NCBI GenBank assembly: GCA_029260295.1
Contig: JAJDDN010000002.1
Coordinates: forward strand, 372,001-436,000
Source of the DNA: Phycisphaerales bacterium
GTDB taxonomy: Bacteria > Planctomycetota > Phycisphaerae > Phycisphaerales > UBA1924
Length of the DNA: 64,000 nucleotides
Direction: 5' to 3'
Under the pieces are notes generated by a model, which was given only the letters and a program-made list of their open reading frames with translations, made no database searches and had not been told where the DNA came from. Positions 47,750-63,072 of the stretch are shown piece by piece. Position 1 is the stretch's first letter. Each line of letters begins with the position of its first letter. The translations under genes and the position numbers were made by a program.

Positions 47750-47753
47750 CTCT

Positions 47754-47798
47754 TCCTCCCTCTCCCATTCTGATGGGAGAGGGTTGGGGTGAGGGCTC
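47754..47798 (+). repeat. REP family A, copy 2
   Basis: Same as copy 1 with TT for CC in the segment after the hairpin; starts 5 bases after the prepilin-like stop. Confidence 0.9.
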
Positions 47799-47855
47799 AC
47801 CGACTTCTCCTCTTTCCTCCCTCCCCTTCTTCCTCTCTTCTTCTGCACATCTTCC

Positions 47856-47915
47856 TCCTCCCCCGGACCTCCGGGGGAGGTGTCTGCGTCTTCGCAGACG
47901 GAGGGGGTCCTTCTT
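47856..47915 (+). repeat. REP family B, copy 1
   Basis: Two hairpins in a row: CCTCCCCC-GGACCTCC-GGGGGAGG and GTCTGCG-TCTT-CGCAGAC, followed by GGAGGGGGTC. About 60 bases after the family A copy. Confidence 0.9.
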
Positions 47916-48103
47916 CTCTTCCAACCCAAAAAACACCCTCCCAAACCCCAAAACGCCCCCCCTGTCAGCAAATTCACTCTACGGCGGTGCAACCATTGGC
48001 AGTCTCATACCAATAGTTCATCAGCCCAAGAAAACTCACGGGCTACCATACCTCTGCGACGATACACACCCGTCGCCACTCATCCACACGGAGCATTAAC
48101 AAG

Positions 48104-48790
48104 ATGAAAAAACTAGTACCAATCGCTGTCCTCGCCCTCGGTGCCGCAGTCTTCGCCGCCGTCGCGTTCGTTCAGCCAACATCAGAAGCCACCGCGGCAA
48201 CCCAACCCGTTGCCACCGAAACAACAACACCCGAAGAAGTCCAGGAGGACACCTTGGTCTACATCGCAATCGAAACCACAAAGGGCACCATGTATCTCGG
48301 ACTCAACGAGACCGCGGCCCCGATCTCCACCGAAAACTTCCTCGCCTACCTCGACGAAGGCTACTACGACAAAACAGTCTTCCACCGCGTCATGAAAGAC
48401 TTCATGATCCAAGGCGGCGGCTTCGCCGAAGGCCTCGTCAAGAAAGAAACCAAAGACGAAATCAAAAACGAATGGACCAACGGGCTCAAAAACTCCCGAG
48501 GCACCATCGCCATGGCACGCCTAGGACGCCAGCCAGACTCCGCGACCTCACAGTGGTTCATCAACCTCGCAGACAACACCTTCCTAGACCAACCACGCGA
48601 CGGCGCAGGCTACGCAGTCTTCGGACAAATCGTCAAAGGCCTCGATGTCCTCGACGCCATCGGCGCCGTACACACCTCCCCACAAGGCATGCACGGCAAT
48701 GTCCCCACCGAACCAGTCATCATCGAATCCGTCACCCGCGTAACCGACGAACAAGCCACCGAACTTGAACTCGCCGGCGCCGACAGCTAA
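48104..48790 (+). CDS. Peptidyl-prolyl cis-trans isomerase, cyclophilin type
   Basis: 228 residues with an N-terminal signal or anchor (A-V-L-A-L-G-A-A-V-F-A-A-V) and a Thr/Glu-rich linker, then the cyclophilin domain: F-H-R-V-M-K-D-F-M-I-Q-G-G, M-A-R-L-G-R-Q-P-D-S-A-T-S-Q-W-F-I-N and F-G-Q-I-V-K-G. The catalytic Arg of F-H-R-V is present. It folds exported proteins in the periplasm. GGAG lies ten bases before the ATG. A strong terminator follows. Confidence 0.94.
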   Translation: MKKLVPIAVLALGAAVFAAVAFVQPTSEATAATQPVATETTTPEEVQEDTLVYIAIETTKGTMYLGLNETAAPISTENFLAYLDEGYYDKTVFHRVMKDFMIQGGGFAEGLVKKETKDEIKNEWTNGLKNSRGTIAMARLGRQPDSATSQWFINLADNTFLDQPRDGAGYAVFGQIVKGLDVLDAIGAVHTSPQGMHGNVPTEPVIIESVTRVTDEQATELELAGADS

Positions 48791-48824
48791 CCCACCAAAG
48801 TTTCTGTCAACATAACTTCACAAA

Positions 48825-48852
48825 AAACGCCACCCGCAAAGGTGGCGTTTTC
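48825..48852. terminator. Terminator between cyclophilin and aldo/keto reductase genes
   Basis: Ten-bp stem (AAACGCCACC/GGTGGCGTTT) with a six-base loop, A-run on the left and TTTTCT on the right; serves both converging genes. Confidence 0.9.
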
Positions 48853-48872
48853 TATTCAATATGCAAACCAAC

Positions 48873-49913
48873 TCAAGACATATCAAGCTCCGTCGCCGAT
48901 GACCGAACCGCCCCGTTCATGAGCTCAAGATCACCCGCATCAAGCACAACCCGCCCCGCCCCCGCATTCTCATTCGCCTGCTGAGCAGTCCGCGCACCCA
49001 CAAGCGCATGCGTCAAACCCTTCTGATGCACCGTCCAAGCAATCACCAACTGCGCCATCGTGCAACCATGCTTCTGAACCACCGGCTCAAACTGAGCCAA
49101 CAAATCCGCAACCTTCTGACGATTCGCCTTACTAAACCGCTTCTGCTTCGAGCGAAGATCCGACTCCCCAAACACCCGCTCCGGCCCAACCTTCCCCGTC
49201 AACAACCCAAGCACCAAAGGCGAATACGCCAGCACCGCCGTGTTATTTTCTAAACAATGCCCAAGCTGGTCCGGCAACCCGTCCTCACCCTGGAACGACC
49301 CACCCTCAAGCTTCCGATGAACCATCGAATACTGCTCCTGATCCGAATCAAGCTCCCCCGCCGCCCGATACGCATCCATCTGCTCAGGCGTCGCATTACA
49401 CACCCCGATCGCCCGGATCTTCCCCTCGTCCTTCAACTCCATCAGCACCCCCATCGTGTCAGCGATCGGCGTCTCCTCTTCCTGCCAATGCGTCTGATAC
49501 AAATCAATATAATCCGTCTGCAATCTTTTCAATGACAGCTCGACCTCCTTGCGGATCGATTCGGGATTGTTCCAGATCTTGATCTCCAGATGCCCGTGCT
49601 CGTCAGGCCCCGCCGCCGTCGATCGCCCAACACTCCGCCCCCCCGGCGCGTTGATCACCATCGAGCACTTGGTCGCAATCACGACCCTGTCCCTCCGGTC
49701 CGCGATCGCCTTGCCCACCACAATCTCCGAGTGACCAAAGCCATAGATCGGAGCCGTATCAATCAGATTAATCCCCGAATCAATCGCCGCATGCACCGCC
49801 GCGATCGACTCACCCTCATCCGCGCCGCCCCACATCCAGCCCCCCATCACCCAAGTCCCGATCCCAACAACAGACGCTTCAATCCCAGACGCTCCAAGCG
49901 GACGCATTTGCAT
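48873..49913 (-). CDS. Aldo/keto reductase
   Basis: 346 residues, TIM-barrel AKR. Active-site Tyr in D-T-A-P-I-Y-G-F-G-H-S-E, Lys in V-I-A-T-K-C, His in Y-Q-T-H-W, and the NADPH-binding end G-A-R-T-A-Q-Q-A-N-E-N. It resembles the Tas/YhdN-like clade. AAGGA eight bases before the ATG at 49913; 29 bases behind the DUF2007 gene, so they may be co-transcribed. Confidence 0.93.
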   Translation of the reverse strand: MQMRPLGASGIEASVVGIGTWVMGGWMWGGADEGESIAAVHAAIDSGINLIDTAPIYGFGHSEIVVGKAIADRRDRVVIATKCSMVINAPGGRSVGRSTAAGPDEHGHLEIKIWNNPESIRKEVELSLKRLQTDYIDLYQTHWQEEETPIADTMGVLMELKDEGKIRAIGVCNATPEQMDAYRAAGELDSDQEQYSMVHRKLEGGSFQGEDGLPDQLGHCLENNTAVLAYSPLVLGLLTGKVGPERVFGESDLRSKQKRFSKANRQKVADLLAQFEPVVQKHGCTMAQLVIAWTVHQKGLTHALVGARTAQQANENAGAGRVVLDAGDLELMNGAVRSSATELDMS

Positions 49914-49942
49914 AGTTCTATTCCTTCAGTCAGTGTGTTCGT

Positions 49943-50176
49943 TTACGAATCCGGATTTGCTTTCTGTTCCGCGATCATCTCCCGCGCAACCTCAGCAAAC
50001 TCCCCAGGCACCAAAACCTGCACCATCCCAGGCGTCTCCGCCCGGAACCCCGCCGTCATCCCACCAGCCGTTTGCGACGGAATCCCCGCCTCAACAAGCA
50101 TGTTCCGCACAAGCGCCGCCTCAAACTCCGTCGGGTACTTCCCAACAACTACAGGATCTGGATGGTTATCTTTCAT
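49943..50176 (-). CDS. DUF2007-type small signal-transduction-like protein
   Basis: 77 residues with the DUF2007 pattern: V-G-K-Y-P-T-E-F-E-A-A-L-V-R-N-M-L-E/A-G-I near the start and V-L-V-P-x-x-x-A-E-V-A-R-E toward the end, a ferredoxin-like half. Function unknown. TATCAT ends five bases before the ATG on the minus strand, so the message is probably leaderless. Confidence 0.8.
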   Translation of the reverse strand: MKDNHPDPVVVGKYPTEFEAALVRNMLVEAGIPSQTAGGMTAGFRAETPGMVQVLVPGEFAEVAREMIAEQKANPDS

Positions 50177-50181
50177 CCACT

Positions 50182-50187
50182 ATGATA
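50182..50187 (-). promoter_or_regulatory. -10-like hexamer, leaderless start of the DUF2007 gene
   Basis: TATCAT (minus strand), five of six to consensus, ends five bases before the ATG at 50176. It overlaps the divergent promoter region of the DUF2238 gene. Confidence 0.5.
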
Positions 50188-50217
50188 GGTCCAACAACAC
50201 AACCTCACGACATCCAC

Positions 50218-50223
50218 TACACT
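50218..50223 (+). promoter_or_regulatory. -10-like hexamer, leaderless start of the DUF2238 gene
   Basis: TACACT ends six bases (GTCTAT) before the ATG at 50230. Confidence 0.5.
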
Positions 50224-50229
50224 GTCTAT

Positions 50230-50880
50230 ATGACAAGGCCACTCCCCCCAGTCCCAAAGGGCCTCACCCTCTTCGTCCTCGCCTTCATGTCCCTCACAAC
50301 CTTAGCCGCACTCAACCAAGGCAACAACGAGTTCCTCTTCTACTCCGTCACCCTCCTCCTCATCATCTACATCCTCGTAGAAATCCACCGAAAAATCCGC
50401 TTCACAAACACCGCACTCTGGCTCCTCACAATCTGGGGCTTCCTCCACATGATCGGAGGCACCATTCCCGTCAGCCCAGAATTCGTCCCAGGAGACGGCT
50501 CCGCAGTCCTCTACTCCTTCCGCCTCCGCCCAGACCTCCCCCGCTACGACCAGATCATCCACGCCTTCGGGTTCTTCAGCGCAACAGTCGCCTGCTGGGA
50601 AATCGTCAAATCCTCACTCAACGCAAAGCAAGGCCTCGCCCTCTCCATCATCGCCGTCCTCATGGGCATGGGCCTGGGCGCCCTCAACGAGGTCCTCGAG
50701 TTCATCGCCACCCGCTTCACCGACACCAATGTCGGTGGCTATGTCAACACAGGATGGGACCTCGTCAGCAATACCATCGGTACAGTCTCCGCCGGCATCT
50801 GGTGCCTCAACCGCCAACCACACCCCCACCCAAACGCCATTCCTGCCGTTCCCAAAAAAGATCCGCCCAAAACGCCGTAA
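50230..50880 (+). CDS. DUF2238 (YjdF-type) inner membrane protein
   Basis: 216 residues with five or six transmembrane helices and the family block I-W-G-F-L-H-M-I-G-G followed later by Y-D-Q-I-I-H-A-F-G-F-F and N-E-V-L-E-F. The W-D-L-V-S-N-T-I-G motif closes the domain. Function is not known. The ATG at 50230 is chosen because the promoter hexamer is six bases before it; the frame can be extended upstream only through the divergent gene. Confidence 0.87.
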   Translation: MTRPLPPVPKGLTLFVLAFMSLTTLAALNQGNNEFLFYSVTLLLIIYILVEIHRKIRFTNTALWLLTIWGFLHMIGGTIPVSPEFVPGDGSAVLYSFRLRPDLPRYDQIIHAFGFFSATVACWEIVKSSLNAKQGLALSIIAVLMGMGLGALNEVLEFIATRFTDTNVGGYVNTGWDLVSNTIGTVSAGIWCLNRQPHPHPNAIPAVPKKDPPKTP

Positions 50881-50906
50881 AACGCCCAAACAACGGGTAT
50901 TCCCCC

Positions 50907-50935
50907 TTGACTCCAAAGCCTATTTCAGGTACAAC
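50907..50935 (+). promoter_or_regulatory. Promoter of the metalloprotease gene
   Basis: TTGACT, 17-base spacer, TACAAC. Expected start near 50942 gives a leader of about 180 bases. Confidence 0.6.
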
Positions 50936-51123
50936 AGACCCTCTCGTAGGGGTAGCGTTGTTTCCGTACCATTTCCTCAGACCTGATTCAGGGTCCCACA
51001 AGCTGACGGCAAAATCAAGCTCCCGATACTCGACTCAAGATCACACCCGATCTCTTGAGCGATCATGATTCGGCACACCGCTCTGACGACGCACAAGCTT
51101 CTGGAAAATCAGAAAGAAAAGCA

Positions 51124-53946
51124 ATGAGCATCAAAGGCATGTCCATCCTCTCATTGAGCCTCGCGTGCGCCGCATATGCAGCCACCCCAGCCTCAACGAC
51201 ACCAACAACAGGCGAGCAACTCGCCACAACAGCAGGTCAGATCACACCAATCACGATCACACAGTCCATCGCAAACTTCAGAGCTACCAACCAAGACTCA
51301 GGAATCTACAAAAGAGACGACGGCACCATCGGCCGAGTCTTCGGCAAAGCCTTCAGCCACGGACAAACATCCGAAATCTCCACCACACGCTTCCTAGACC
51401 AACACCTCAACATGTGGGGCGTTAATGCAAGCCATCTCGTCGCCGAAGGCCCATTCGATGACGGACACCACACACAACAAATCGGCTACCTACCAGAGTT
51501 CGACGACTACAAGTTCACAGGACACTACTACAAGCAAATCGTCGACGGCGTCCCCGTATTCCGCTCCAAACTCGTCCTCCTCACAAGAAACGAAGCAAAC
51601 AACCCCCTCGTCCTCGCCTCCTCAGAACTCCGAAACCTCGGAGGCTTCCAGCTCGATGCCCAGACCAGCCGCATGGCAATCAACCACGGCCGCATCGTCA
51701 AAAACGCGCAAGCACACTTCAACCTCGGCGCAGTCCTCGACTCCTCAGAACGAGTCATCTACGCCGGTGTCGAAAACGCACCACACGCACCCGTACTCGC
51801 CGACAAATCAACAGTTGAAATCAACGGCTTCGAAAAACACCTCATCGTCACCGACGCAATGACCGGCGAAGTACTCTTCACAGAAAGCCTCATCCACACC
51901 GTAGACATCACAGGCAATGTCTCAGGCATGGCAACCGAAGGCCCAGGCGCAGACATCTGCGAAAACGAAATCTCACAACCTCTCCCACACCTCACCGTCA
52001 CGGGCCCGTCAGGATCCACTCAAACAGACGCCAACGGAAACTACACACTCTCAAACGCAGGCTCCATCGATATTGGCATCGGCGCAACACTCACAGGACA
52101 GTGGTTCCGCGTTATCGACTTCGTCGGCTCTGTCGAAACCGTAGTCGACACCGTCACCCCTCCAGGACCAGGCGACCTCCTATTCAACGCCGCAAACGCT
52201 ACACAAAGCAACCGCGCACAAGTCAACGCATACCTGGAATCAAATGTCGTCCGCGATCACGCAATCGCAGCAAACCCAGCCTTCCCAGGACTCAACTTCC
52301 GTATGGATGTCATCGTCAATCGCTCCGACGGCTTCTGCCCCGGAAACGCATGGTACGATCCAGGAGTTCAAACCATCAACTTCTGTTCCTCAGGCGGAGG
52401 CAGCCCAAACACCGCCTGGGCCTCAGTCATCCACCACGAATACGGACACCACCTCGTTAATGTCGGCGGCTCAGGCCAAGGCCAGTACGGCGAAGGCTTC
52501 GGCGATGTCATGAGCGCAATCATCCTTGATGACAACCGCCTCGGACTCGGTTTCTTCGGAAACTGCAACTCCGCGCTCCGCAACGCCGTCAACAACCTCC
52601 AATACCCCTGCGCCACCGACGGCCACGCATGTGCAGGCCTCCTCTCAGGCGCCGTCTGGGAAACACGCAACGCCATGGTCGCAAGCAATGTCTCGGATTA
52701 CACCGATGTGCTCAACTTCCTTGCCGTCAACTCCATCCTCGTTCACTCAGGCTCGACCATCACCCCCCAAATCACCATCGACTGGCTCACCCTCGACGAT
52801 GATGACGGAGACATCGGAAACGGGACTCCACACTACTCCGAAATCGCCATCGGCTTCGCCGCCAAAAACATGGACGCCCCAGCACTCAATGTCCTCTCAA
52901 TCTCCTACCCAGCAGGACAACCAGATACGGTCAGCCCAGACGGCGGCACCCCGCTTCTGGTAAACTTCGACGCGATCTCAAGCCCCGTAAACCCATCGAC
53001 AGCCACGCTGATGGTTGATACAGGATCAGGTTTCGTAGCCGTCCCAATGACACAGAACTCAGCAACCCAGTTTGAAGTCAGCTTCCCAGCTTCAAACTGC
53101 GGCTCAGGGCTGTCCTACTACATCACCTCAGAAGCTGTAAACGGCGCAATCCAAAACTCGCCAACCAACGCACCCGCCGCCGGCGTCTTCTCCACAATCT
53201 CATCCTTCGGCCCACCGGTCGTCTCATTCGATGACAACTTCCAGACCAACACTGGCTGGACCGTCTCAGGAGGCCCCGCCAACGCCGCATCAGGCCGCTG
53301 GCAGCGGGCAACCCCTACAGGCGCTGGCCAACGCGGCGATCCCGCAAACGACAGCGACGGCTCAGGACTCTGCTATGTCACAGGAAACGGCGGCCCAGGC
53401 GCAAACACCGATGTTGACGGCGGCACAACAATCCTGACCTCACCGGTCATGGACGCCTCCGGCGACGCTTCCGTCATCGAATACACCCGCTGGTACAACA
53501 ACTCCTGGGGCGATTCACCAATGGCAGACAGCATGTTCGTCGATGTCTCAGACAACGCAGGCGCAAGCTGGGTTTCACTCGAAATCGTCGGCCCGGCAGG
53601 CTCAGAAGTCACCGGCGGCTGGATCACCAAGCAGTTCCCAATCAATGATGTCGCAGGGATCTCACCTACCAGCCAGTTCATGATCCGATTCAGCGTTGGC
53701 GACCTCGGCGCGGGCTCCGTGATCGAAGCCGGCATCGACGCCGTTAACCTCTCGCAGTTTGACTGCACCGGGAACGCATGCCCCGCCGACTTGACCGGCG
53801 ACGGCGCACTGGACTTCTTCGATATCTCAGGATTCCTCACACTGTTCGCCGCAGGCGATCTCGGTGCAGATTTCAACAGCGACGGCGCACTGGACTTCTT
53901 CGACATCTCCTCATTCCTCACCGCATTCTCAGCAGGATGCCCTTGA
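51124..53946 (+). CDS. Secreted M36 (fungalysin)-like metalloprotease with GC-type dockerin-like repeats
   Basis: 940 residues. Signal peptide, then an FTP-type propeptide (G-V-P-V-F-R-S-K-L-V-L), a carboxypeptidase-regulatory-like insertion (G-P-S-G-S-T-Q-T-D-A-N-G-N-Y-T-L) and the catalytic domain with zinc motif H-E-Y-G-H-H near residue 438 and third ligand in G-E-G-F-G-D. The rest is a beta-sandwich pair and C-terminal repeats A-D-L-T-G-D-G-A-L-D-F-F-D-I-S and D-F-N-S-D-G-A-L-D-F-F-D-I, ending S-A-G-C-P. ATG at 51124 has GAAAGAAAAG upstream. The C-terminal 320 residues match the serine protease at 33937, so both are probably displayed by the same system. Confidence 0.88.
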   Translation: MSIKGMSILSLSLACAAYAATPASTTPTTGEQLATTAGQITPITITQSIANFRATNQDSGIYKRDDGTIGRVFGKAFSHGQTSEISTTRFLDQHLNMWGVNASHLVAEGPFDDGHHTQQIGYLPEFDDYKFTGHYYKQIVDGVPVFRSKLVLLTRNEANNPLVLASSELRNLGGFQLDAQTSRMAINHGRIVKNAQAHFNLGAVLDSSERVIYAGVENAPHAPVLADKSTVEINGFEKHLIVTDAMTGEVLFTESLIHTVDITGNVSGMATEGPGADICENEISQPLPHLTVTGPSGSTQTDANGNYTLSNAGSIDIGIGATLTGQWFRVIDFVGSVETVVDTVTPPGPGDLLFNAANATQSNRAQVNAYLESNVVRDHAIAANPAFPGLNFRMDVIVNRSDGFCPGNAWYDPGVQTINFCSSGGGSPNTAWASVIHHEYGHHLVNVGGSGQGQYGEGFGDVMSAIILDDNRLGLGFFGNCNSALRNAVNNLQYPCATDGHACAGLLSGAVWETRNAMVASNVSDYTDVLNFLAVNSILVHSGSTITPQITIDWLTLDDDDGDIGNGTPHYSEIAIGFAAKNMDAPALNVLSISYPAGQPDTVSPDGGTPLLVNFDAISSPVNPSTATLMVDTGSGFVAVPMTQNSATQFEVSFPASNCGSGLSYYITSEAVNGAIQNSPTNAPAAGVFSTISSFGPPVVSFDDNFQTNTGWTVSGGPANAASGRWQRATPTGAGQRGDPANDSDGSGLCYVTGNGGPGANTDVDGGTTILTSPVMDASGDASVIEYTRWYNNSWGDSPMADSMFVDVSDNAGASWVSLEIVGPAGSEVTGGWITKQFPINDVAGISPTSQFMIRFSVGDLGAGSVIEAGIDAVNLSQFDCTGNACPADLTGDGALDFFDISGFLTLFAAGDLGADFNSDGALDFFDISSFLTAFSAGCP

Positions 53947-53998
53947 TCTGAAAGGCAACGATCGATAACCGATAGTGCCCACAATCAATAACATAATC

Positions 53999-54035
53999 GG
54001 CGGGCGGCCCCTTTGAGCCGCCCGCCTTTCTTTTT
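53999..54035 (+). terminator. Terminator of the metalloprotease gene
   Basis: Ten-bp GC-rich stem (GGCGGGCGGC/GCCGCCCGCC) followed by TTTCTTTTT. Confidence 0.95.
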
Positions 54036-54110
54036 ATCACACCCCCCGCAAACCCCCATAAGCCACTCAAGAACTCAAAGAGCGGGCCCCGGGGAATCTG
54101 CACCAAAATG

Positions 54111-54119
54111 TGGTACACT
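54111..54119 (+). promoter_or_regulatory. Extended -10 promoter, leaderless
   Basis: TG-G-TACACT ends six bases (CCATGC) before the ATG at 54126. Confidence 0.6.
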
Positions 54120-54125
54120 CCATGC

Positions 54126-54953
54126 ATGGGAGTCCACTCCATCCAAGCCCGACTTTATTTGATCACACTTTCCCTCTTCACATGCGGGGCTCTCGCCCAG
54201 AGCGATCTGTTAAAGGGACCAGAGGTCAAGAAAACCGGATCGATCGTCCGCCACACCATGTCGGGACGGTTTGAACAACTAGAAGGCCGCCCAGAAATGG
54301 CGGCATTCAACGCCGTAACCGCAAACTCATCGCTCGCCGATCTAGCCATCGAAATCGAACTGCAACGCACAGTCGCACTGTCAATGCTGCTCATCGACCA
54401 GATCGATCTCATGAAAGAATCCACCGATGCAGCACTGGCCGGCAACAACAAAGAAGCCAACAGGATCCAAGGACAGCTCCACAAACTCTTTGATCCCAAC
54501 CAACGCTCCGACCCCCTGACACCAGGACTCATAGAACTCCTCGACAAAAAACAACGCCGAGAGTACACAAAGATCCTCGATGAGTACTGGGACGCCTGGA
54601 TCGATTCAACACTCGGCGATCGCAAAGACAAGGACAAACCCGCAGTCCGCAATCGCGTACGCAGCCGACTAACCACCCGACTCTTCAACCACGAGCTCAG
54701 CGAGGCATACAACATCTCACTCAAGCAGTACCGTGATGCGATAGAAGCAATTTACGCCGCTGTCGAACCCACTGAAGATCAACGCGAAGCTATGCGTGAA
54801 ATCCTAATCACATACATCAAAGAAACCCGCCTCGACCCCAGCGCCGAGCAACGACGCGATGCGATGGTTCAAATGTATGATTTACTCGATCAAGAACGGC
54901 AACAGAAGCTCTTTATCTACCTTCTCCAGATCGTCATCCCAGCCGACGGCTAA
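54126..54953 (+). CDS. Secreted helical protein, 275 residues
   Basis: A signal peptide (L-Y-L-I-T-L-S-L-F-T-C-G-A-L-A-Q) is followed by a mostly helical, charged protein (E-L-L-D-K-K-Q-R-R-E-Y, E-D-Q-R-E-A-M-R-E-I-L). No family recognised. The ATG at 54126 is chosen over that at 54108 because the latter lies inside the promoter. It is the last gene with C-rich + strand before the skew change. Confidence 0.7.
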   Translation: MGVHSIQARLYLITLSLFTCGALAQSDLLKGPEVKKTGSIVRHTMSGRFEQLEGRPEMAAFNAVTANSSLADLAIEIELQRTVALSMLLIDQIDLMKESTDAALAGNNKEANRIQGQLHKLFDPNQRSDPLTPGLIELLDKKQRREYTKILDEYWDAWIDSTLGDRKDKDKPAVRNRVRSRLTTRLFNHELSEAYNISLKQYRDAIEAIYAAVEPTEDQREAMREILITYIKETRLDPSAEQRRDAMVQMYDLLDQERQQKLFIYLLQIVIPADG

Positions 54954-55235
54954 ACGATCGAACGCCCAGAGCCGGTGTGATAAATAATCAGCTCTAATAG
55001 GCTCACGATCAGGATCAACCCCATGTGATCCTATCAATATAGACACGATCCAAATCCCGCCTATAACTGCAATACAAAGCATGCCGTCGAAACTACCTAT
55101 ATTTCCCAGTACCCGTGTTATGCAGGGCAAACTTGGCAAGTTTCTGAAATCAGTTGTAAATCCGATGGCATCACGCGGATCTGGTTTGCACATATTCAGA
55201 GTAGTGGCCGGACCGCCACTGAATAGGAGGGACAG
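54954..55235. other. Candidate replication origin (GC-skew inflection)
   Basis: An AT-rich gap where + strand skew reverses. In three 60-base samples: 54361-54420 has 12 G and 17 C, 55441-55500 has 27 G and 10 C, 63121-63180 has 27 G and 9 C. Near-DnaA boxes (TTWTNCACA) are at 54976-54984 (TTTATCACA on the minus strand, one mismatch) and 55184-55192 (GTTTGCACA, one mismatch), with weaker ones at 55118-55126. GATC occurs at least six times, and AGGATCA-N8-TGATCCT forms an inverted repeat near 55011-55032. No perfect DnaA box and no dnaA gene are present, so this rests on skew. Confidence 0.55.
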
Positions 55236-56123
55236 ATGCGTGCACCAATCTATATCGTATCAACCGGGATCGGGCTTTTGATGGCTGCCTCGGCTTATGG
55301 GCAGGACAATGGGCAGGCCGAGTCTGGGTTGCTTGTGCTGAACAGTTCTGCGCCGGGGGCGCTGAGCATGACTGGGAACTCGCATATTGAGATTCCGGCG
55401 CGGATTGTCTATGTCAACTCGTCTTCGGACAACGCGGTTCGGACTACTGGGACGGCGGTGCTTGATGCGGTGTCGTTGTATGTTGTTGGGGGCGCGTCGT
55501 TTGGTGGGCAGTCGGAATGTACTGGGACCGTTGTGGAGGGTGCGCCTGGGATTTATGATCCGCTGGCGAATAGGTCGTTCCAGTTTGAAAATGAATCTAA
55601 TTCGTACCAGTTTTATGAACAGGGTTCTGATGGAATGCCGGTCGTGCTTGAGCCTGGGTTTTATCCGTATGGGATTCGGATTACTGGGAATACGGATGTT
55701 GTTTTTTCGCCGGGCGTGTTTGTGCTTGGCGGGGAAGGGTTTGTGGTGACTTCTGGTGATGTCAGCGGCGAGGGTGTGTGTTTGGTGATCAACTCTGGTG
55801 AAGTTCGGTTGGCGGGGTCATCTTCGTTGATGCTTACGCCGCCGGAGGATGGTGAGATGGAAGGGATTGTGCTGACTCAGCCTTCGTGGAATGATTCGGA
55901 TATGCATCTGGCTGGCGGGAGTGAGTTTTCGGTATCGGGCACGATTTACGCGCCTTCTGCTGAGCTGACGATGGTTGGCAATAGCACGATTGCGGGTGAG
56001 GGGCCTCAGATGGGCGATTTGGTGATTGCTGATACTGTGGATCTTCGTGGTACGGCGATGATCCGGATTGGTCATGAGAATAGCAAGATCGTGACTTTGC
56101 CGAGCTTGCCTTTGTATGACTGA
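55236..56123 (+). CDS. Secreted beta-rich protein (possible polymer-forming or pilus-associated)
   Basis: 295 residues with a signal peptide (A-S-A-Y-G-Q). The mature protein alternates short Gly/Ser turns and beta strands (G-N-S-H-I-E-I, S-S-L-M-L, G-N-S-T-I-A-G, R-G-T-A-M-I-R-I) typical of a right-handed beta-helix, and ends E-L-T-M-V-G-N-S-T-I-A-G. This pattern is seen in planctomycetal TadG-like and surface proteins, but I cannot name a family. AGGAGG five bases before the ATG. First gene on the right of the skew switch; its codons are G/T-rich, unlike the genes to the left. Confidence 0.7.
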   Translation: MRAPIYIVSTGIGLLMAASAYGQDNGQAESGLLVLNSSAPGALSMTGNSHIEIPARIVYVNSSSDNAVRTTGTAVLDAVSLYVVGGASFGGQSECTGTVVEGAPGIYDPLANRSFQFENESNSYQFYEQGSDGMPVVLEPGFYPYGIRITGNTDVVFSPGVFVLGGEGFVVTSGDVSGEGVCLVINSGEVRLAGSSSLMLTPPEDGEMEGIVLTQPSWNDSDMHLAGGSEFSVSGTIYAPSAELTMVGNSTIAGEGPQMGDLVIADTVDLRGTAMIRIGHENSKIVTLPSLPLYD

Positions 56124-56829
56124 GCTTGGTTGCTAGGAATGATTTGATTGCACGAGCGATCGACCTTGGGCGAGCCTGCTTGGTTCGCCCTTTTCTTTTT
56201 TGTTGGATTGAAGGGGTTGGGTCTGGGTGACGGCTTGGGGATTGGTTGGTTGAAGAACCTCCTTTGCCATTCGGGTCAGAGGAAGACACAGGCGGAGGGG
56301 GGAACGAAGTAGGAGAAGTCTGGGAGCCCTCACCCTGCCCTCTCCCTCGGGGAGAGGGCGGAGAAAGAGGCCGGAGGATGGCTGTTGCGGCTTTGCGTTG
56401 GGTTTCTCTTTGGGCGTCGGTTTCGGGGTAGGTCTTTAGGAGATCGGTGAGGCGGGCTTTGGCCAGGGTTTTTGATTCTGGTTCGAGGAGTTTGTCTCTT
56501 GCGGTGGCGATGCGGGCGATGCATTGGACTGCTTGTGTGTAGGTTTCGGATTCGAGGATGGCGGCGAGTTGGGGGAGGGTGAGGTTGTGGAGCTGGCAGA
56601 GTTCGAGTGAGCCGAGGGTTGGGTTTTGGAGGTCTTCGAGGAGTTCGTTGGTGAGCTGGTTTATTGAGCCACTGGCCACTGGGGACTGGGCACTGGGGGA
56701 AGAGGGGGAAGATGAAGAGGAAGGCGAAGGGGTGGAAGAGGAGGGAGAAGACGGGGAGCCCTCACCCCGGCCCTCTCCCCGGGGGAGAGGGGGGAAGATT
56801 GATTCGGTTGTTTCACATGTTTTGTTCAT
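55834..56829 (-). CDS. Hypothetical protein interrupted by two in-frame REP elements
   Basis: The open frame has 331 codons, but only residues about 55-155 look like a protein: helices reading N-Q-L-T-N-E-L-L-E-D-L-Q and L-P-Q-L-A-A-I-L-E-S-E-T-Y-T-Q-A. On both sides the REP sequences at 56325-56363 and 56756-56797 are translated (P-L-P-R-G-E-G-R-G-E-G-S and S-P-R-G-R-G-Q-G-E-G-S). The part after the second REP runs antisense into the neighbouring gene and is probably run-on after loss of the original stop. No ribosome site. Boundaries of the working protein are uncertain. Confidence 0.45.
   Translation of the reverse strand: MNKTCETTESIFPPLPRGEGRGEGSPSSPSSSTPSPSSSSSPSSPSAQSPVASGSINQLTNELLEDLQNPTLGSLELCQLHNLTLPQLAAILESETYTQAVQCIARIATARDKLLEPESKTLAKARLTDLLKTYPETDAQRETQRKAATAILRPLSPPSPRGRGQGEGSQTSPTSFPPPPVSSSDPNGKGGSSTNQSPSRHPDPTPSIQQKRKGRTKQARPRSIARAIKSFLATKLSHTKASSAKSRSCYSHDQSGSSPYHEDPQYQQSPNRPSEAPHPQSCYCQPSSAQQKARKSCPIPKTHSRQPDAYPNHSTKAESAQSLPSHHPPAA
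56168..56201 (+). terminator. Terminator of the beta-rich secreted protein gene
   Basis: GGGCGAGCC-TGCTT-GGTTCGCCC (9 bp, one G-T) followed by TTTTCTTTTTT. Confidence 0.9.
56325..56363 (-). repeat. REP family A, copy 3
   Basis: AGCCCTCACCCTGCCCTCTCC with a CCCTCGGGGAG-type hairpin; inverted relative to copies 1-2. Lies inside the 331-codon frame. Confidence 0.85.
56756..56797 (-). repeat. REP family A, copy 4
   Basis: AGCCCTCACCCCGGCCCTCT followed by CCCCGGGGGAGAGGGG. Also inside the 331-codon frame, near its start. Confidence 0.88.
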
Positions 56830-57011
56830 GTGGAATTGAAGGCGGGGTTTTTATTCGGCGGGGTGGATTGGGTGGGTTTGGGGAGAGGGATTGCGCACAG
56901 ATGTGGTCAGTGCGGGGGGTTTGGCGCACGGAATTGGTTGTTCGTGGTTCAAGATCATGCAGGAGTCGAAGACGACACCTACATGGCACCCGGTATGGAG
57001 AGATTAGGGGA

Positions 57012-57044
57012 GAAAACCCGACGCGCCGAAGACGGCGGGTCGGG
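57012..57044 (-). terminator. Terminator of the WYL-like gene
   Basis: On the minus strand CCCGACCCGCCG-TCTT-CGGCGCGTCGGG, one mismatch, followed by TTTTCT; 18 bases after the stop at 57062. Confidence 0.85.
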
Positions 57045-57061
57045 GCACCCGGCCATGTCAT

Positions 57062-57355
57062 CTATTCAACAAACGCTATCACTTGATCCCATTTCGAATG
57101 TGAACCACTCGGATACGGTCTTGGACCATCAAACTCATCGTCAGTTAAGCAGTACCCACTAATACCATCAATAAACATTCTTCGCCAGCCCAACGGAGAA
57201 CCACTAGAACTAGACCCACCAACTTGATACACCAATACCCCATACTGCCCCTGATTTATCCCAAGCACATGCGGCTCAACAACACGAGAATGCCCTCCGT
57301 AATCGAACTCGATAATATTTTTTGCTGAAATTGCATTTCTGATTTCTTCAATCAT
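57062..57355 (-). CDS. Stand-alone WYL-like domain protein
   Basis: 97 residues forming one WYL-type (Sm-like) domain: I-I-E-F-D-Y-G-G-H-S-R-V-V-E-P-H-V-L-G, then V-L-V-Y-Q-V-G-G-S-S-S-S-G-S-P-L-G-W-R-R and a G-P-R-P-Y segment. WYL domains bind nucleotides or other ligands and often sit in regulators of phage-defence genes; here there is no DNA-binding domain. AAGGAG six bases before the ATG, and 13 bases behind the NDT-like gene, so the two are an operon. The region is AT-rich with C over G on the + strand, against its flanks. Confidence 0.75.
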   Translation of the reverse strand: MIEEIRNAISAKNIIEFDYGGHSRVVEPHVLGINQGQYGVLVYQVGGSSSSGSPLGWRRMFIDGISGYCLTDDEFDGPRPYPSGSHSKWDQVIAFVE

Positions 57356-57368
57356 CTCTTACTCCTTA

Positions 57369-58481
57369 TTATGATTTTAACAAAGACAAGTAGCTTCCAC
57401 CTTGCTCTCGGTCGATCCATGTTTGCTTGATGTGCTCAATCATATTTGGCAAATCTTCACAAACTGTCGAGCCCCACAAGCAAGGGTTGTATGAATACAC
57501 ACGAATCATGTGGTCAACATCAAACAGCGGTCCAGTGCCAGTCGATTTAATAATCGCTACGGGTTTTTCTTGTGCAATTCTGACTCCAAGCTCGAACATG
57601 ACATTCGGATTATGCTCAGTCAAATCGGCAACAACAATATCTGCTTCAAGTAGGTTTTTAACTATCGTCCTTTGAATCACATCTGAGCCCGATTTCTTTG
57701 CAGTCCGTACTCGAAATCCAATTTCTTTCGCAGCGGGAACAACTAAAGAACGAAGCACTTCATCAAAGAACCCCTTTGCATGTGTAGGATCACGCTCTGA
57801 AAACGGCAGAATCACAAAGCACAATGGCGCGTCTTCTGATTCAGATGTGGCTATATCAACTACACTTGATGTAGCAGATTCTTCTGATTCCAACGGGACT
57901 TCAGCCGGGTAGCTCTGGCGAGATTTTACAAAATCACTACCAATCCCAACGGATTTACAACTGTCAGTATAGATATTCACGAAATCAACATGAACCAGAG
58001 GATCTAAACCAAACTCTTTAGATAGTGTATTTGACAAGTATTCCATTTCTGGCAAGTTTAATCCGCCAAAATGATCTAAGACATTGTCGAATACAGGCAC
58101 ATTGCGAAACCCATCGACCAACGCAGCTAAACGCTCGGACGAACTTGATGGATAAACGGCTTTTCGCCCAAGCTCCGTCAACTCGATCTTCTCTGAATCT
58201 CTTGATCCAATGGTAAATCCATAATCTCTCGACGCAGCGCTTAAGTAAAAAAACTGATTACCTCTCGCTCCTAAATTAATTGCCTTTGCAACATCTTCAG
58301 ACGCGTAAGCGTTTCCGTTATTTTTATCTTTGATTGCCTGTGGTACGCGCAATGCATCGGATACTGACATTCTCGGGAACGGTCTTTCTACAACTACCTT
58401 TTTTTGTTTCGCAGTTTTCTTTTTGGTTGCTTTAGTAGCTTTTTTCTTTACTCTTTTTTTAGTTGCTTTCTTTTTTGCCAT
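57369..58481 (-). CDS. Lys-tailed winged-helix/nucleoside 2-deoxyribosyltransferase-like (TIR-like) protein
   Basis: 370 residues. Residues 1-32 are a histone-H1-like tail of K-K-K-A-T and T-K-K units. About 38-120 look like a winged-helix domain (A-Y-A-S-E-D-V-A-K-A-I-N-L, Y-G-F-T-I, I-E-L-T-E-L-G-R-K). The C-terminal 150 residues are the NDT/TIR-like fold: C-F-V-I-L-P-F-S-E, L-L-E-A-D-I-V-V-A-D-L-T and N-P-N-V-M-F-E-L-G, the last with the likely catalytic Glu. Relatives cleave NAD or nucleosides, several as antiviral effectors. ATG at 58481 (GGAG seven bases upstream) is preferred over 58508. A terminator-like hairpin ends ten bases before the start region. Defence role is inference. Confidence 0.75.
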   Translation of the reverse strand: MAKKKATKKRVKKKATKATKKKTAKQKKVVVERPFPRMSVSDALRVPQAIKDKNNGNAYASEDVAKAINLGARGNQFFYLSAASRDYGFTIGSRDSEKIELTELGRKAVYPSSSSERLAALVDGFRNVPVFDNVLDHFGGLNLPEMEYLSNTLSKEFGLDPLVHVDFVNIYTDSCKSVGIGSDFVKSRQSYPAEVPLESEESATSSVVDIATSESEDAPLCFVILPFSERDPTHAKGFFDEVLRSLVVPAAKEIGFRVRTAKKSGSDVIQRTIVKNLLEADIVVADLTEHNPNVMFELGVRIAQEKPVAIIKSTGTGPLFDVDHMIRVYSYNPCLWGSTVCEDLPNMIEHIKQTWIDREQGGSYLSLLKS

Positions 58482-58490
58482 TCTATATCT

Positions 58491-58530
58491 CCAATAAAGA
58501 AGGGACACTCCCTGCTAGGAAGCGTCCCTT
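58491..58530 (-). terminator. Terminator-like hairpin just before the NDT-like gene (possible attenuator)
   Basis: On the minus strand a 14-bp stem with three-base loop (AAGGGACGCTTCCT/AGGGAGTGTCCCTT, G-T pairs allowed) followed by CTTTATT. It lies between groL and the ribosome site of the NDT-like gene, so it both ends the groE transcript and may control readthrough. Confidence 0.75.
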
Positions 58531-58664
58531 GTGTGTACGGATCGTGTGTGGTAGCTCTTCTGTGAAGAGGCTCGTTCTAAACCATTCATTGAAGCGGAGA
58601 TGCGTGCTTTCACACGCATGTCCGTTTGGATTCTAGTAGCCGGACAGGGCCCGGTCAAATTGGG

Positions 58665-60296
<1,632 letters not shown>

Positions 60297-60338
60297 CTAT
60301 CTCCTTGCATCTGTTATTGATGCGTGATTGATTTTGTA

Positions 60339-60557
60339 TTAGAGTCCGATTCGTATGTATGCGATTCGTTCTGCTTCGATGATGTAGACGGATTGGCCGT
60401 CGGTGACTTTGACGAGTTTGTCTGTTTCTTCTGGTATGAGCATTGCCTTTGGGATGGTGAGGTTTGTGGCGGATTCGTGCATGCCTGTGAGGGCGAAGTG
60501 TGCGTTTCTTTCGCCGTTGAGTTCATTGAGTGCTTGTCGGAGTTGGGATTGGTTCAT
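60339..60557 (-). CDS. Small protein encoded between groES and groL
   Basis: 72 residues, start ATG overlapping the stop of the preceding gene as ATGA, so translation is coupled. The protein begins M-N-Q-S-Q-L-R-Q-A-L-N-E-L and ends Y-I-I-E-A-E-R-I-A-Y-I-R-I-G-L, an alpha/beta pattern I do not recognise. Its base skew matches groES and groL, so it looks native to the operon. A role linked to the chaperonin is possible from position only. Confidence 0.65.
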   Translation of the reverse strand: MNQSQLRQALNELNGERNAHFALTGMHESATNLTIPKAMLIPEETDKLVKVTDGQSVYIIEAERIAYIRIGL

Positions 60558-60916
60558 AATCTTGACATGTGAGGCGGCAGGCCTCCCCCTAGATAAATCA
60601 TTGAAATTTGTTCAGGATCAAGCGTCAGCCAACTATCAGGCGTTTCCGGGTCAGAACCATGCAAAGTAATTGTGTACCTTCCCAGTGGGATCCCAATTGA
60701 TTTGTAATCCCCATATTCTTCACCCCGAGTGATAAACTTACAATCGATTCCTTCGGGCACATATGGCGAAACCAAACCTGAATCAAAGGGCAATTGGAAT
60801 TCTAAGCCGGGTTTTGGATAAACATCAATCCGAACGCCGTTGCTCATAAAAATTACAACCAAGCGTTCTTCTTTTAATGCTTCAATATACCGATCGACAA
60901 ATACTTTGCAGTCCAT
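60554..60916 (-). CDS. Hypothetical protein inserted between groES and groL
   Basis: 120 residues, starting 5 bases after the groES stop with GGAG inside the groES end. It begins M-D-C-K-V-F-V-D-R-Y-I-E-A-L-K-E-E-R and contains S-N-G-V-R-I-D-V-Y-P and L-T-L-D-P-E-Q-I-S-M-I-Y-L-G-G. Its sequence is AT-rich with weak skew, unlike the genes on both sides, so it is probably a recent arrival that uses the chaperonin promoter. Function unknown; size and acidity would suit an immunity or adaptor protein. Confidence 0.6.
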   Translation of the reverse strand: MDCKVFVDRYIEALKEERLVVIFMSNGVRIDVYPKPGLEFQLPFDSGLVSPYVPEGIDCKFITRGEEYGDYKSIGIPLGRYTITLHGSDPETPDSWLTLDPEQISMIYLGGGLPPHMSRL

Positions 60917-60921
60917 AATTT

Positions 60922-61233
60922 TTACTCCACGATCGCCAGAACATCTGACGCGTTGATGATGAGGTACTCTTCGCCGTCGAGCTTGAGTTCGGTGCCGCCC
61001 CACTTGCTGAGGATGATGCGGTCGCCTACGGTGACATCGAGGGGGATGCGGGTGCCGGAGTCTGACATGGTGCCGTTGCCTACTGCGAGGACGGTGGCGA
61101 ACTGTGGTTTTTCGGAGGCTGATTCTGGGAGGTAGATTCCTGCGGAGGTTTGTGTTTCTGCGGCGTCGCGTTCTACGAGGATTTTGTCGTGGAGGGGGCG
61201 GACTGCTACTTTGGATTTGGTGTTGGTTGCCAT
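60922..61233 (-). CDS. groS: 10-kDa co-chaperonin GroES
   Basis: 103 residues. V-R-P-L-H-D-K-I-L-V at the start, the mobile loop T-Q-T-S-A-G-I-Y-L-P, then V-G-D-R-I-I-L-S-K-W-G-G-T-E-L and E-E-Y-L-I-I. AAGGA nine bases before the ATG. It caps GroEL in the folding cycle. First gene of the operon; no CIRCE element upstream, but a TTGCAAC/GTTGCAA inverted repeat is at 61263-61280. Confidence 0.97.
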   Translation of the reverse strand: MATNTKSKVAVRPLHDKILVERDAAETQTSAGIYLPESASEKPQFATVLAVGNGTMSDSGTRIPLDVTVGDRIILSKWGGTELKLDGEEYLIINASDVLAIVE

Positions 61234-61262
61234 GGTGTTGTTTCCTTATTTCTTGTCTGAGA

Positions 61263-61280
61263 TTGCAACGGTGGTTGCAA
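61263..61280. promoter_or_regulatory. Inverted repeat upstream of groES
   Basis: TTGCAAC-GGTG-GTTGCAA, perfect 7-bp arms, 30 bases before the groES start. It is in the place where CIRCE would be but has a different sequence; may be the operator of an unknown heat-shock regulator. Confidence 0.5.
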
Positions 61281-61379
61281 ATGGTTTCTTATTTGGATCC
61301 GCTTGTGCGGGGTGAATGGACGGTTTTTGATTTGTGTGAAGAGTAGAGGTAGGAAGATTGAGTGAAGAGGAAGAAGACG

Positions 61380-61425
61380 GGGAGCCCTCACCCCGGCCCT
61401 CTCCCATCAGAATGGGAGAGGGAGG
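61380..61425 (-). repeat. REP family A, copy 5
   Basis: Inverted copy with ATCAGAAT loop, core identical to copy 1 at 46477; lies between groES and the receiver-domain gene. Confidence 0.9.
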
Positions 61426-61436
61426 AAGAGTTTGGT

Positions 61437-61958
61437 TCATGAGAGGCCTCCTTGGGTTGGCCAGCGGCCTTGGTAGTGGCGGGTGAGGCAGCGGCGGAGG
61501 ACTTCTAGTAATGATTCGAGGTCGCGCTGGGCGTGGGGGCGGTCGACGACGGCGAAGGCGCCGGCGCGGAGGGCGGCGTTGAGTTCACGGGTGTCGTCGC
61601 GGTCGGTGCGGTTTCTTTTGATGACGACGATCGGGGGAGGTGATGCGAGGCGGGTGAGGAGATTGAGGAGGCGTGGGCCTGACTCTTCGCATTGGCCTGG
61701 GGAGCAGTCCAATGGGAGGGCGAGGTCGACGACGGCGATGTGGATTGGGTTGGAGTCGATGACTCTTTGGGCGGCGTCGGCTGAGTGGGCGATGTGGGAC
61801 TCGATGCCTAGGGGTTCGAGCATTCTGGGTAGGCGGTCAACCCATGGGTCTGACTGCCATCCTGCTCTTGAGAGGAGGAGATTGAGGCGACCGCTTGTGG
61901 CACCGGTTTGGGCGCCTTGGGGGGAGGGCTGATCGGGTTGGTTCCGGTGGACCGTCAT
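61437..61958 (-). CDS. Receiver-domain-like protein
   Basis: 173 residues: a Pro/Gln-rich N-terminus of about 25 residues, then a CheY-like fold. The phosphoacceptor Asp would be in V-V-D-L-A-L-P, and the conserved Lys in V-I-K-R-N-R. The acidic pair at the end of strand 1 is missing, so phosphorylation is uncertain. No histidine kinase nearby. It ends next to a REP element and starts near a divergent 200-bp gap. Confidence 0.65.
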   Translation of the reverse strand: MTVHRNQPDQPSPQGAQTGATSGRLNLLLSRAGWQSDPWVDRLPRMLEPLGIESHIAHSADAAQRVIDSNPIHIAVVDLALPLDCSPGQCEESGPRLLNLLTRLASPPPIVVIKRNRTDRDDTRELNAALRAGAFAVVDRPHAQRDLESLLEVLRRCLTRHYQGRWPTQGGLS

Positions 61959-62158
61959 GTGGCTGTATGTATGGCAAAGGGCGTGCCGGTTTTGGGGGCT
62001 TTGGAGGGGTGAATTTGGTGGAATTTAGGGGGGTTGGGGGATTGGGGTGGTGTCAGGAAGTGGCGATTTTGGGTCGGGATGCCAAGTTGGCAGGGGGTCT
62101 GGGTGATTATTCATGCTATAGACGGGGACGGGAGAAGCATGGCAGGCAGGTGGCCGGC

Positions 62159-62926
62159 TCAAGCCGTTGGATTCTGAGCAGGTTTTGTGGAGCGTTTTCG
62201 TTTGGGGGCGATGCGCCAGATCCAGAGGGCGATGCCTGTGATTGCGGTGAGGATTGCGAGGAGGCTGGCGATGGTGAGGAGGGGGGTGTTGAAGTTGTCG
62301 CGGTTTTTGTAGTCCATTGTGTGGAGCATCCAGAAGAAGTCGAAGGTGCGCCAGTTGTCGTTTCTTCGGGCGGTGATTCGGCCTAGGTTTGCGTCGATGT
62401 AGATGTGGGGATGCTTTGGGTGGTCAAGTTTGACCTGGTAGGCGGGGAGGGGGCCTTCGCGGTATTCGGTTGGGATTGATTCGGAGCTTTCGTCGAAGAG
62501 TATTGTGCTGGCGATTGTTGATTCGTGGGTGAAGTCTCGGAGGGCGATGAACTCGGCGTCTTGGGGGGTGATGAGGTTGGTTGGGGTGCCGAGTTGGTCG
62601 AGGCGGAGGAGGAGCTTTGAACTTGTATTTCGGATTTCCCAGTGTGGGCCTAGGCCTCGGTCGGTGAGGGTGACGACAGCGATGTCGGGGTTGTTGAGGT
62701 CTTTGATTGCGGCTTGGATGGTTTCTGGGAGTGCGTTGATTGAGTTGCTGTCGAGGGGGGCGTTTGTGATCATGTGGGCGTCGGCGACGCCTCGGACGGC
62801 GTTGATGTCGAGGACAGAGAAGATGAATCCACCGACGCTCCAGGCGAGGAGCTGGAGGGCGATGATGAGGGCGAGGTAGCGGTGGGCGGTGTAGGTGAAC
62901 TTGCGTGGTTTGAGTTTGCGTTTCAT
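62159..62926 (-). CDS. PepSY-associated transmembrane protein
   Basis: 255 residues with an N-terminal transmembrane helix (L-A-L-I-I-A-L-Q-L-L-A-W-S-V-G-G), a periplasmic PepSY-like region (Y-Q-V-K-L-D-H-P, I-Y-I-D-A-N-L-G-R-I-T-A-R) and a second helix near the end (L-L-T-I-A-S-L-L-A-I-L-T-A-I). The motif W-x-x-H/D-x-M-D-Y is present as F-F-W-M-L-H-T-M-D-Y. These proteins accompany ferric-siderophore or redox systems; here it stands alone. Confidence 0.8.
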   Translation of the reverse strand: MKRKLKPRKFTYTAHRYLALIIALQLLAWSVGGFIFSVLDINAVRGVADAHMITNAPLDSNSINALPETIQAAIKDLNNPDIAVVTLTDRGLGPHWEIRNTSSKLLLRLDQLGTPTNLITPQDAEFIALRDFTHESTIASTILFDESSESIPTEYREGPLPAYQVKLDHPKHPHIYIDANLGRITARRNDNWRTFDFFWMLHTMDYKNRDNFNTPLLTIASLLAILTAITGIALWIWRIAPKRKRSTKPAQNPTA

Positions 62927-62972
62927 GATGGGGGAGGATATGCGGGGATGGATGGGATGAAGAGGAAGAGAA

Positions 62973-63066: not shown

Positions 63067-63072
63067 CCTGAC

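What the first reader, a model, noticed from the sequence alone, without database searches (positions are those of the whole stretch)
54954..55235. Sharp GC-skew reversal marks a probable chromosomal origin
Left of this gap the + strand carries more C than G whichever strand is coding; right of it G strongly exceeds C (counts in three 60-base samples: 12 G/17 C at 54361, 27/10 at 55441, 27/9 at 63121). A change from negative to positive skew along + is the origin signature. rpoBC, rplKAJL, gyrA and rpsA all point leftward, away from the gap, as leading-strand genes do. The gap is AT-rich with two one-mismatch DnaA boxes, many GATC sites and a GATC-centred inverted repeat. There is no dnaA or dnaN alongside, which would make this a non-canonical origin location.
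Basis: partly seen in the sequence, partly recalled or inferred. Interest (0 to 1): 0.8.

Follow-up and report, generated by a model that had tools for sequence, protein, structure and literature searches.

The report
Bacterial chromosome with many replication origins
This bacterial chromosome carries at least eleven sharp strand-composition switches, nine of them within 800 bases of a predicted chromosome-segregation site, so it is likely copied from many start points at once, whereas a bacterial chromosome is thought to use only one.

Summary
The skew reversal is real and lies at the gap, but it is not "the" origin. In the half of this 2.91-Mb planctomycete draft genome that I read there are 11 sharp minus-to-plus GC-skew rises (0.43-0.65) and no drop above 0.25. 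Four lie on the window's own 440-kb contig. Between rises the skew falls linearly, as in human replication "N-domains", and at third codon positions it follows place, not gene strand. All 10 exact parS-type sites of the genome (TGTTCCACGTGGAACA, as Pseudomonas parS2/3) lie within 800 bp of a rise, two of them beside the only parB found. In a congener (G006), 8 of 8 places chosen by parS alone sit on a rise. The window's gap is one of two rises without parS; its orthologous place in G006 is where a parS-less rise had already been seen, while 5 of 5 single-parS congeners with the orthologue show none. Best reading: many efficient origins at places shared between species, most with their own centromere site. 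DnaA boxes are not enriched at the rises; a second motif, TTTGTGCGCAC, is. Firing itself is untested.

The parts
54954..55235 (.). Intergenic gap, proposed replication origin without parS
   Evidence: Skew sign change at 55114; no parS with up to 3 mismatches anywhere in the window; no TTTGTGCGCAC with up to 2 mismatches in the gap
55057..55298 (.). Interval of the cumulative GC-skew minimum (within 12 counts of it)
   Evidence: C2:427057-427298
1..55056 (.). Left arm, negative skew: right part of an N-shaped domain that runs from C2:294616 to C2:427114
   Evidence: linear fit r2 0.83 over 132 kb
55299..64000 (.). Right arm, positive skew, interrupted by an AT-rich stretch at about 57000-58600
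   Evidence: the contig ends 3,665 bp after the window
54108..54953 (+). 281-aa protein gene at the left edge of the gap, no Pfam family; used as the marker for the orthologous place in relatives
55236..56123 (+). 295-aa protein gene at the right edge of the gap; DUF7305 match below the curated cut-off
58665..60293 (-). groEL (Cpn60), reads towards the gap, against the proposed fork direction
60922..61233 (-). groES (Cpn10), reads towards the gap

Best explanation
The gap is likely one of at least eleven bidirectional replication origins spread along one bacterial chromosome; eleven sharp minus-to-plus GC-skew rises are present, and nine of them have a parS-type site within 800 bp. Shown: the rises, the absence of comparable drops, the linear decline between rises on the contig that was read through, the independence of gene strand, the match with parS-type sites, and the shared places in related species. 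Inferred: replication would start at most of these places in most cell cycles, because each rise is a near-complete reversal of sign; if one origin out of eleven fired per cycle, each rise could be only about a tenth of the full swing. Inferred: forks would leave each origin both ways and meet at variable places between neighbours, which would smear termination into the linear decline. Inferred: ParB on the nearby parS would pull each newly copied origin apart, so that the chromosome would have many centromeres; parS probably follows origins and does not make them, since two rises (this gap and C2:85348) have none. The initiator is unknown: DnaA boxes are not enriched at the rises, and TTTGTGCGCAC, whose core lies 30-102 bp from parS at five of the eight dispersed places, is the candidate binding site (inference).
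For: Eleven rises of 0.43-0.65 and no drop above 0.25 among 1,594 positions. Three complete domains of 86, 123 and 132 kb on C2 with linear decline, r2 0.81-0.87, better than one step. Third-position skew within 10 kb: left -0.70 (plus genes, n=33) and -0.50 (minus, 35), right +0.50 (plus, 33) and +0.68 (minus, 39); intergenic -0.30 and +0.25 within 20 kb. All 10 exact parS-type sites of the whole genome are 47-799 bp from a rise, although the rises had been fixed by skew first. The only parB match is beside the C6:488k rise. G006: 8 of 8 parS places have a minus-to-plus change within about 1 kb (one of them, C5, is 1.1 kb from its contig end). Congeners with dispersed parS: skew higher on the right in 18 of 18 loci (16 places), by more than 0.2 in 17; eight single-parS congeners: 0 of 8. 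Eight of nine parS-bearing places of G000 share flanking genes with a parS place of one to three congeners, among 22 loci compared. The window's parS-less rise recurs at the orthologue in G006 (clear), G019 (clear) and G004 (weak), and not in 5 of 5 single-parS congeners with the orthologue. Simulated stochastic firing gives such domains with 70-100% of origins firing.
Against: No read depth and no experiment. Draft genomes; half of G000 unread. C5:25053, a one-mismatch parS, has no rise. In other genera the association is weaker: 11 of 17 loci clear; 17 of 18 loci (15 places) higher on the right but only 6 by more than 0.2. G032, with a single exact parS, has irregular skew and no clear rise at it. 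No DnaA-box cluster (at most 2 in 400 bp) and no shared element that accounts for the two parS-less rises. TTTGTGCGCAC was chosen after looking, so its P values are optimistic.
Confidence: 0.85

Rival explanations
1. One ordinary origin, with many inversions or chimeric assembly joins that flip blocks and so create false skew minima.
For: The genome is a draft from an uncultured organism in 8 contigs; relatives were read only in stretches; G032 has irregular skew.
Against: An inverted block has one rise and one drop, both sharp; there are 11 rises above 0.4 and no drop above 0.25. The rises sit on parS-type sites and recur at orthologous places in other genomes.
Confidence: 0.04
2. Fusion of several replicons (chromosome, chromids, plasmids), each keeping its own origin and centromere, as in the fused dicentric chromosomes of Agrobacterium.
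For: Such fusions occur in nature and both origins stay active (PMC12153318, abstract and outline).
Against: Only one parB match in the genome and one type of parS site, where fused replicons would be expected to bring their own; rises 86-132 kb apart; one rise lies at recA. Other replicon initiators were not searched for.
Confidence: 0.04
3. A real multi-origin pattern in the past, now mostly silent: one origin fires today and the skew is a relic.
For: Skew responds slowly and no activity was measured; two rises lack parS.
Against: The rises are nearly equal in size, 0.53-0.84 over 10 kb, and parS-type sites and places are kept between species, which a relic would not require.
Confidence: 0.05
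4. Transcription, not replication, sets the skew: genes diverge from the rises.
For: Gene orientation and skew often go together in bacteria (general knowledge).
Against: Genes near the rises are almost evenly oriented, both strands show the same sign on each side, and so does intergenic DNA.
Confidence: 0.02

Closest known systems
Skew N-domains of the human genome (PMC3320577, passages read)
   Same: Abrupt rises that border segments of linearly falling skew, read there as origins and a gradient of fork polarity
   Different: Human domains are megabase-sized; here 86-132 kb where measured, in a bacterium, with a parS-type site at 9 of 11 rises
Archaeal chromosomes with several origins (Sulfolobus, Haloferax; PMC3269012, passages)
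   Same: Several skew polarity changes on one chromosome
   Different: Two or three origins in those examples; here at least eleven, and DnaA proteins are present. Archaeal-type initiators were not searched for
Bacteria suspected of several origins from skew alone (Wigglesworthia, Wolbachia, Synechocystis, Mycoplasma pulmonis in PMC3269012, passages; double origins in PMC4403523, whole text)
   Same: Same kind of argument from skew
   Different: Those are one or a few switches without an independent marker; here there is a site match, linear domains, a gene-strand control and conserved places
Fused two-origin bacterial chromosomes (Agrobacterium, PMC12153318, abstract and outline; Vibrio cholerae, PMC5603330, passages)
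   Same: More than one origin and centromere on one natural bacterial chromosome; both shown active in Agrobacterium
   Different: Two origins from two replicons; here at least eleven, one parB, one site type
parS sites of Pseudomonas aeruginosa (PMC4368675, abstract and one table passage)
   Same: parS2 and parS3 are identical to this 16-bp site; several sites on one chromosome
   Different: There the important four are close to the single oriC; here nearly every exact site is at its own skew rise

Membership tests
Canonical bacterial oriC | Minus-to-plus skew change | tested here: met
Canonical bacterial oriC | Cluster of DnaA boxes | tested here: not met
   TTATCCACA with up to 1 mismatch: none in the gap, 2 against 3.9 expected near the 11 rises, at most 2 in 400 bp in 1.45 Mb
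Canonical bacterial oriC | Beside dnaA or dnaN | tested here: not met
   dnaA at C6:383k and C5:82k, dnaN at C6:357k
Canonical bacterial oriC | One per chromosome | tested here: not met
   eleven rises, four of them on one contig
Multi-origin chromosome | Several sharp rises without sharp drops | tested here: met
   11 rises above 0.4, largest drop 0.25
Multi-origin chromosome | Gradual decline of skew between origins | tested here: met
   three complete domains on C2, r2 0.81-0.87
Multi-origin chromosome | Skew follows place and not transcription | tested here: met
Multi-origin chromosome | Initiation at each place in cells | not testable with these tools
   no reads, no culture
ParABS centromere site parS | 16-bp palindrome of a known parS | tested here: met
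   10 exact copies in the genome, identical to P. aeruginosa parS2/3
ParABS centromere site parS | Site beside parB | tested here: met
   two exact and one one-mismatch copy 0.4-1.0 kb from parB
ParABS centromere site parS | Binding by ParB | not testable with these tools
   no assay
ParABS centromere site parS | Present at the window's own gap | tested here: not met
   none with up to 3 mismatches in the window
Fused multi-replicon chromosome | A separate partition system for each centromere | tested here: not met
   one parB match, one site type
Fused multi-replicon chromosome | A separate replication initiator for each origin | not tested
   plasmid-type initiators were not searched for

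The most novel reading that the evidence does not exclude
A lineage of planctomycetes has given up single-origin replication: its chromosome is copied in every cycle from a dozen or more origins whose places are inherited between species, nearly each with its own parS centromere, and started through a site other than the DnaA box (TTTGTGCGCAC, perhaps read by the lineage's second DnaA). Several genera of the family may have done this separately.
Probability: 0.45. Interest if true: 0.97.

Novelty: categorically new. Interest (0 to 1): 0.93.

Why it matters
[quoted passage not shown] Since then two active origins have been shown on fused Agrobacterium chromosomes (PMC12153318, abstract and outline). 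A bacterium with eleven or more origins would be of another order and would show that one origin is not a basic limit of the bacterial machinery. It would make testable how many forks are coordinated without a fixed terminus, how sister origins separate with many centromeres, and how a lineage changes over, since a sister clade of the same genus keeps one parS pair. My searches of the held library listed no report of this; that library lacks most subscription papers and all preprints. I rate it categorically new for bacteria; whoever counts archaeal and eukaryotic multi-origin chromosomes as the same kind would call it a new variant.

Tried and rejected
Canonical oriC anatomy at the gap: rejected. 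One displaced origin: rejected. Inversions or chimeric joins as the general cause: rejected (no drops). Transcription: rejected. parS as the cause of the rises: rejected, since two rises in G000 and one in G006 have none. A second dnaA as the cause: rejected, since two DnaA matches are found in 22 of 24 genomes tested, single- and multi-parS alike (G020 has three pieces, G011 none). A sequence element for the window's parS-less rise: none found; TTTGTGCGCAC with up to 2 mismatches is not in the gap. Named relatives by the one genome-contig scan: 5 Phycisphaerae/Planctomycetota loci at 38-40% identity, not analysed further.

Weak or contrary results: G024 C322, G025 C35 and C135, G026 C11, G035 C3 and G000 C5:25053 are parS-like places without a clear rise (in G025 C135 the site is 177 bp from the contig end), and G035's own par locus shows no clear change at the site. 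G107 C14 goes the other way. Overlapping loci: the 18 are 16 places, the 18 are 15 places, and one of these (L286) has only 260 bases on the right. G006 C5 has only 1.1 kb on the right of the change point. G005 has, besides its pair, a one-mismatch copy on another contig. The sites with two mismatches in the 11 single-parS congeners number 30, against 29 for the reversed control pattern.

Full report
WHAT WAS CHECKED. The window is C2:372001-436000 of an unnamed 2,910,212-base draft genome (G000; 8 contigs, 92.2% complete, 1.6% contamination). Among the 120 ParB relatives listed, those whose source names an organism are mostly Phycisphaerales or Phycisphaerae, and the five named relatives of the neighbour gene are Phycisphaerae or other Planctomycetota, so it is a planctomycete, probably of the Phycisphaerales (inference). 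The skew switch is real: the cumulative minimum is at window 55114 and the quoted counts are exact. The DnaA boxes exist only for a loose consensus; the GATC and inverted-repeat remarks are not supported.

NOT ONE SWITCH BUT ELEVEN. I sampled the genome with mostly 6-8-kb stretches, about every 30 kb on the large contigs (855 kb with the window), then filled zones where the sign went from minus to plus and the rest of C2 from 60 kb on. This gave rises at C2 85348, 171521, 294616 and 427114 (the window); C3 239737; C4 39653; C6 208021 and 488465; C8 263802, 602274 and 871567. With 6 kb on each side, 1,594 positions tested, the eleven best rises are these eleven (0.43-0.65), the twelfth is 0.21, and the largest drop is 0.25. 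A rise near C6:332.5k could not be tested that way because 2 kb are missing, so eleven is a lower bound, from half of the genome. In the three complete domains on C2 (86, 123, 132 kb) a line explains 81-87% of the variance and fits better than a one-step model. The dnaA/dnaN region (C6:350-390k) has skew near zero and no strong rise.

WHY REPLICATION. Within 10 kb of the rises, third-position skew on the plus strand is -0.70 and -0.50 on the left for plus and minus genes, +0.50 and +0.68 on the right. Genes are nearly evenly oriented (33/35 and 33/39), and intergenic DNA has the same signs. So side, not gene strand, sets the sign. Rises without drops are what many origins with unfixed termination predict and what inversions do not. 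A simulation of stochastic firing gives better-than-step linear domains with near-full reversal when firing times vary by roughly 50-120 kb of fork travel, with 70-100% of origins firing. By argument (no call), one randomly chosen origin per cycle could give each rise only about 1/N of the full swing.

A SEGREGATION SITE AT THE RISES. With the rises fixed by skew alone, a k-mer comparison of the 1 kb around each with the rest of the held sequence found one strongly enriched element, the palindrome CAATTGTTCCACGTGGAACAATTG and its parts (core in 7 of the 11 stretches). The 16-bp core equals parS2 and parS3 of P. aeruginosa (PMC4368675, one table passage). The whole genome has 10 exact copies and two with one mismatch, none with two. 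All 10 lie 47-799 bp from a rise, marking 9 of 11. Of the two one-mismatch copies, one is at the parB rise and the other (C5:25053) has no rise. The one parB found is beside the C6:488k rise, with three sites 0.4-1.0 kb away. C2:85348 and the window have none.

OTHER SPECIES. (a) G006, same genus, about 10 contigs: its eight parS places, fetched by sequence alone, all have a minus-to-plus change point within about 1 kb. (b) In six congeners with dispersed parS, 18 of 18 loci (16 places) have higher skew on the right over 1.5 kb or less, 17 by more than 0.2; in eight single-parS congeners 0 of 8; in G000 4.3% of positions exceed 0.2. Wider stretches of two of the latter, G002 and G009, do show a weak switch at their par locus, from about -0.1 to +0.1, as one origin there would. 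(c) Flanking genes show that eight of the nine parS-bearing places of G000 are parS places in one to three congeners, among 22 loci compared. (d) Other genera: 11 of 17 loci clear, within about 2 kb (G024 6/7, G025 3/5, G026 2/3, G035 0/2), amplitudes mostly near 0.1; in six more genomes 17 of 18 loci (15 places) are higher on the right, 6 by more than 0.2, among them all three examined on contig C1 of G063. (e) In a sample of 150 family genomes 74 have no site of the type TGTTCCAYRTGGAACA and 15 have four or more.

THE WINDOW'S OWN ORIGIN. The 281-aa gene at its left edge has orthologues in 8 of 15 congeners examined (3 of 6 multi-parS, 5 of 9 single-parS). In G006 the orthologue is at C10:445 kb, inside the 410-460 kb interval where a sparse sweep had already shown a change from -0.24 to +0.25. 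G006 and G019 have the sign change at or within about 1 kb of this gene, G004 a weak one; the five single-parS congeners have no lasting sign change there. No parS (up to 3 mismatches) is near it in any of the eight.

HOW IT MAY HAVE ARISEN. In a DnaA tree of 28 genomes the multi-parS members of the genus form one clade (support 100/98; it also holds the 56%-complete G007, with two sites), and ten single-parS members another (99/98); G010, single, is on a long branch outside both. In the eleven single-parS congeners the sites form one pair 0.8-1.2 kb apart (in three of them one partner has a mismatch), and G005 has one further one-mismatch copy. So the change may have happened once inside the genus (inference), and separately or earlier elsewhere in the family.

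WHAT STARTS REPLICATION. Unknown. DnaA boxes are not enriched (2 against 3.9 expected). A second motif is: GTGCGCAC occurs 16 times in 1.40 Mb, five of them within 1 kb of a rise and 30-102 bp from parS; TTTGTGCGCAC with up to one mismatch has 10 strand-wise matches near rises against 0.5 expected (palindromic sites count twice, motif chosen after looking). CGCACAA is found near 23 of 29 parS loci of the genus. Two copies 70 bp apart lie at C6:364.1k, near a weak parS-less rise of 0.18. The motif is absent from the window's gap. A second DnaA with its own complete DNA-binding domain occurs in nearly all tested relatives; that it reads this motif is a guess.

LIMITS. No read data, no experiment; drafts; half of G000 unread; other species known only from stretches; G032's irregular skew is unexplained.

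Noticed in passing
G000, 1.45 Mb held; also stretches of G006 and G002: The tetramer ACGT is almost absent: 50 against 5,520 expected from base composition in G000 (24 against 832 in G006, 11 against 335 in G002), but not in G024, G032 or G035. Ten of the 50 are inside parS, and every CACGTG in the held sequence is a parS. Perhaps a restriction or methylation effect.
   Followed up: partly
G000 C6 about 332500 and C6 364100: Two weaker rises without parS: -0.45 to about +0.15 near 332.5k (2 kb missing nearby), and 0.18 at 364.5k with two TTTGTGCGCAC-like boxes 70 bp apart, close to dnaN.
   Followed up: partly
G000 C5:25053-25068: A one-mismatch parS (TGTTCCACATGGAACA) inside uniformly positive skew, no rise.
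   Followed up: partly
G000 C3 1-158000: Sampled skew is almost constant near -0.13 to -0.17 for about 150 kb, unlike the linear domains on C2.
   Followed up: no
G032 contig C1: A family member with one exact parS has irregular skew (-0.31 at 480k, +0.22 at 640k, -0.13 around its parS, +0.22 at 860k), which may mean parS-less origins or inversions.
   Followed up: no
window 57000-58600: AT-rich stretch (GC 0.41-0.46) with a 379-aa ORF on the minus strand (57369-58508; weak nucleoside 2-deoxyribosyltransferase match) that breaks the positive skew of the right arm; looks recently acquired.
   Followed up: partly
window 47332-48099, 55834-56829, 61246-61440: Translations of overlapping or spurious ORFs repeat a SPILMGEGRGEGSP-like string, which suggests a dispersed DNA repeat.
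   Followed up: no
G000 C8 871567 and parS at C8:872359: This rise and its parS lie at recA (recognised from its sequence); the same recA-parS pairing is seen in G006 C6:54k and G001 C119.
   Followed up: partly
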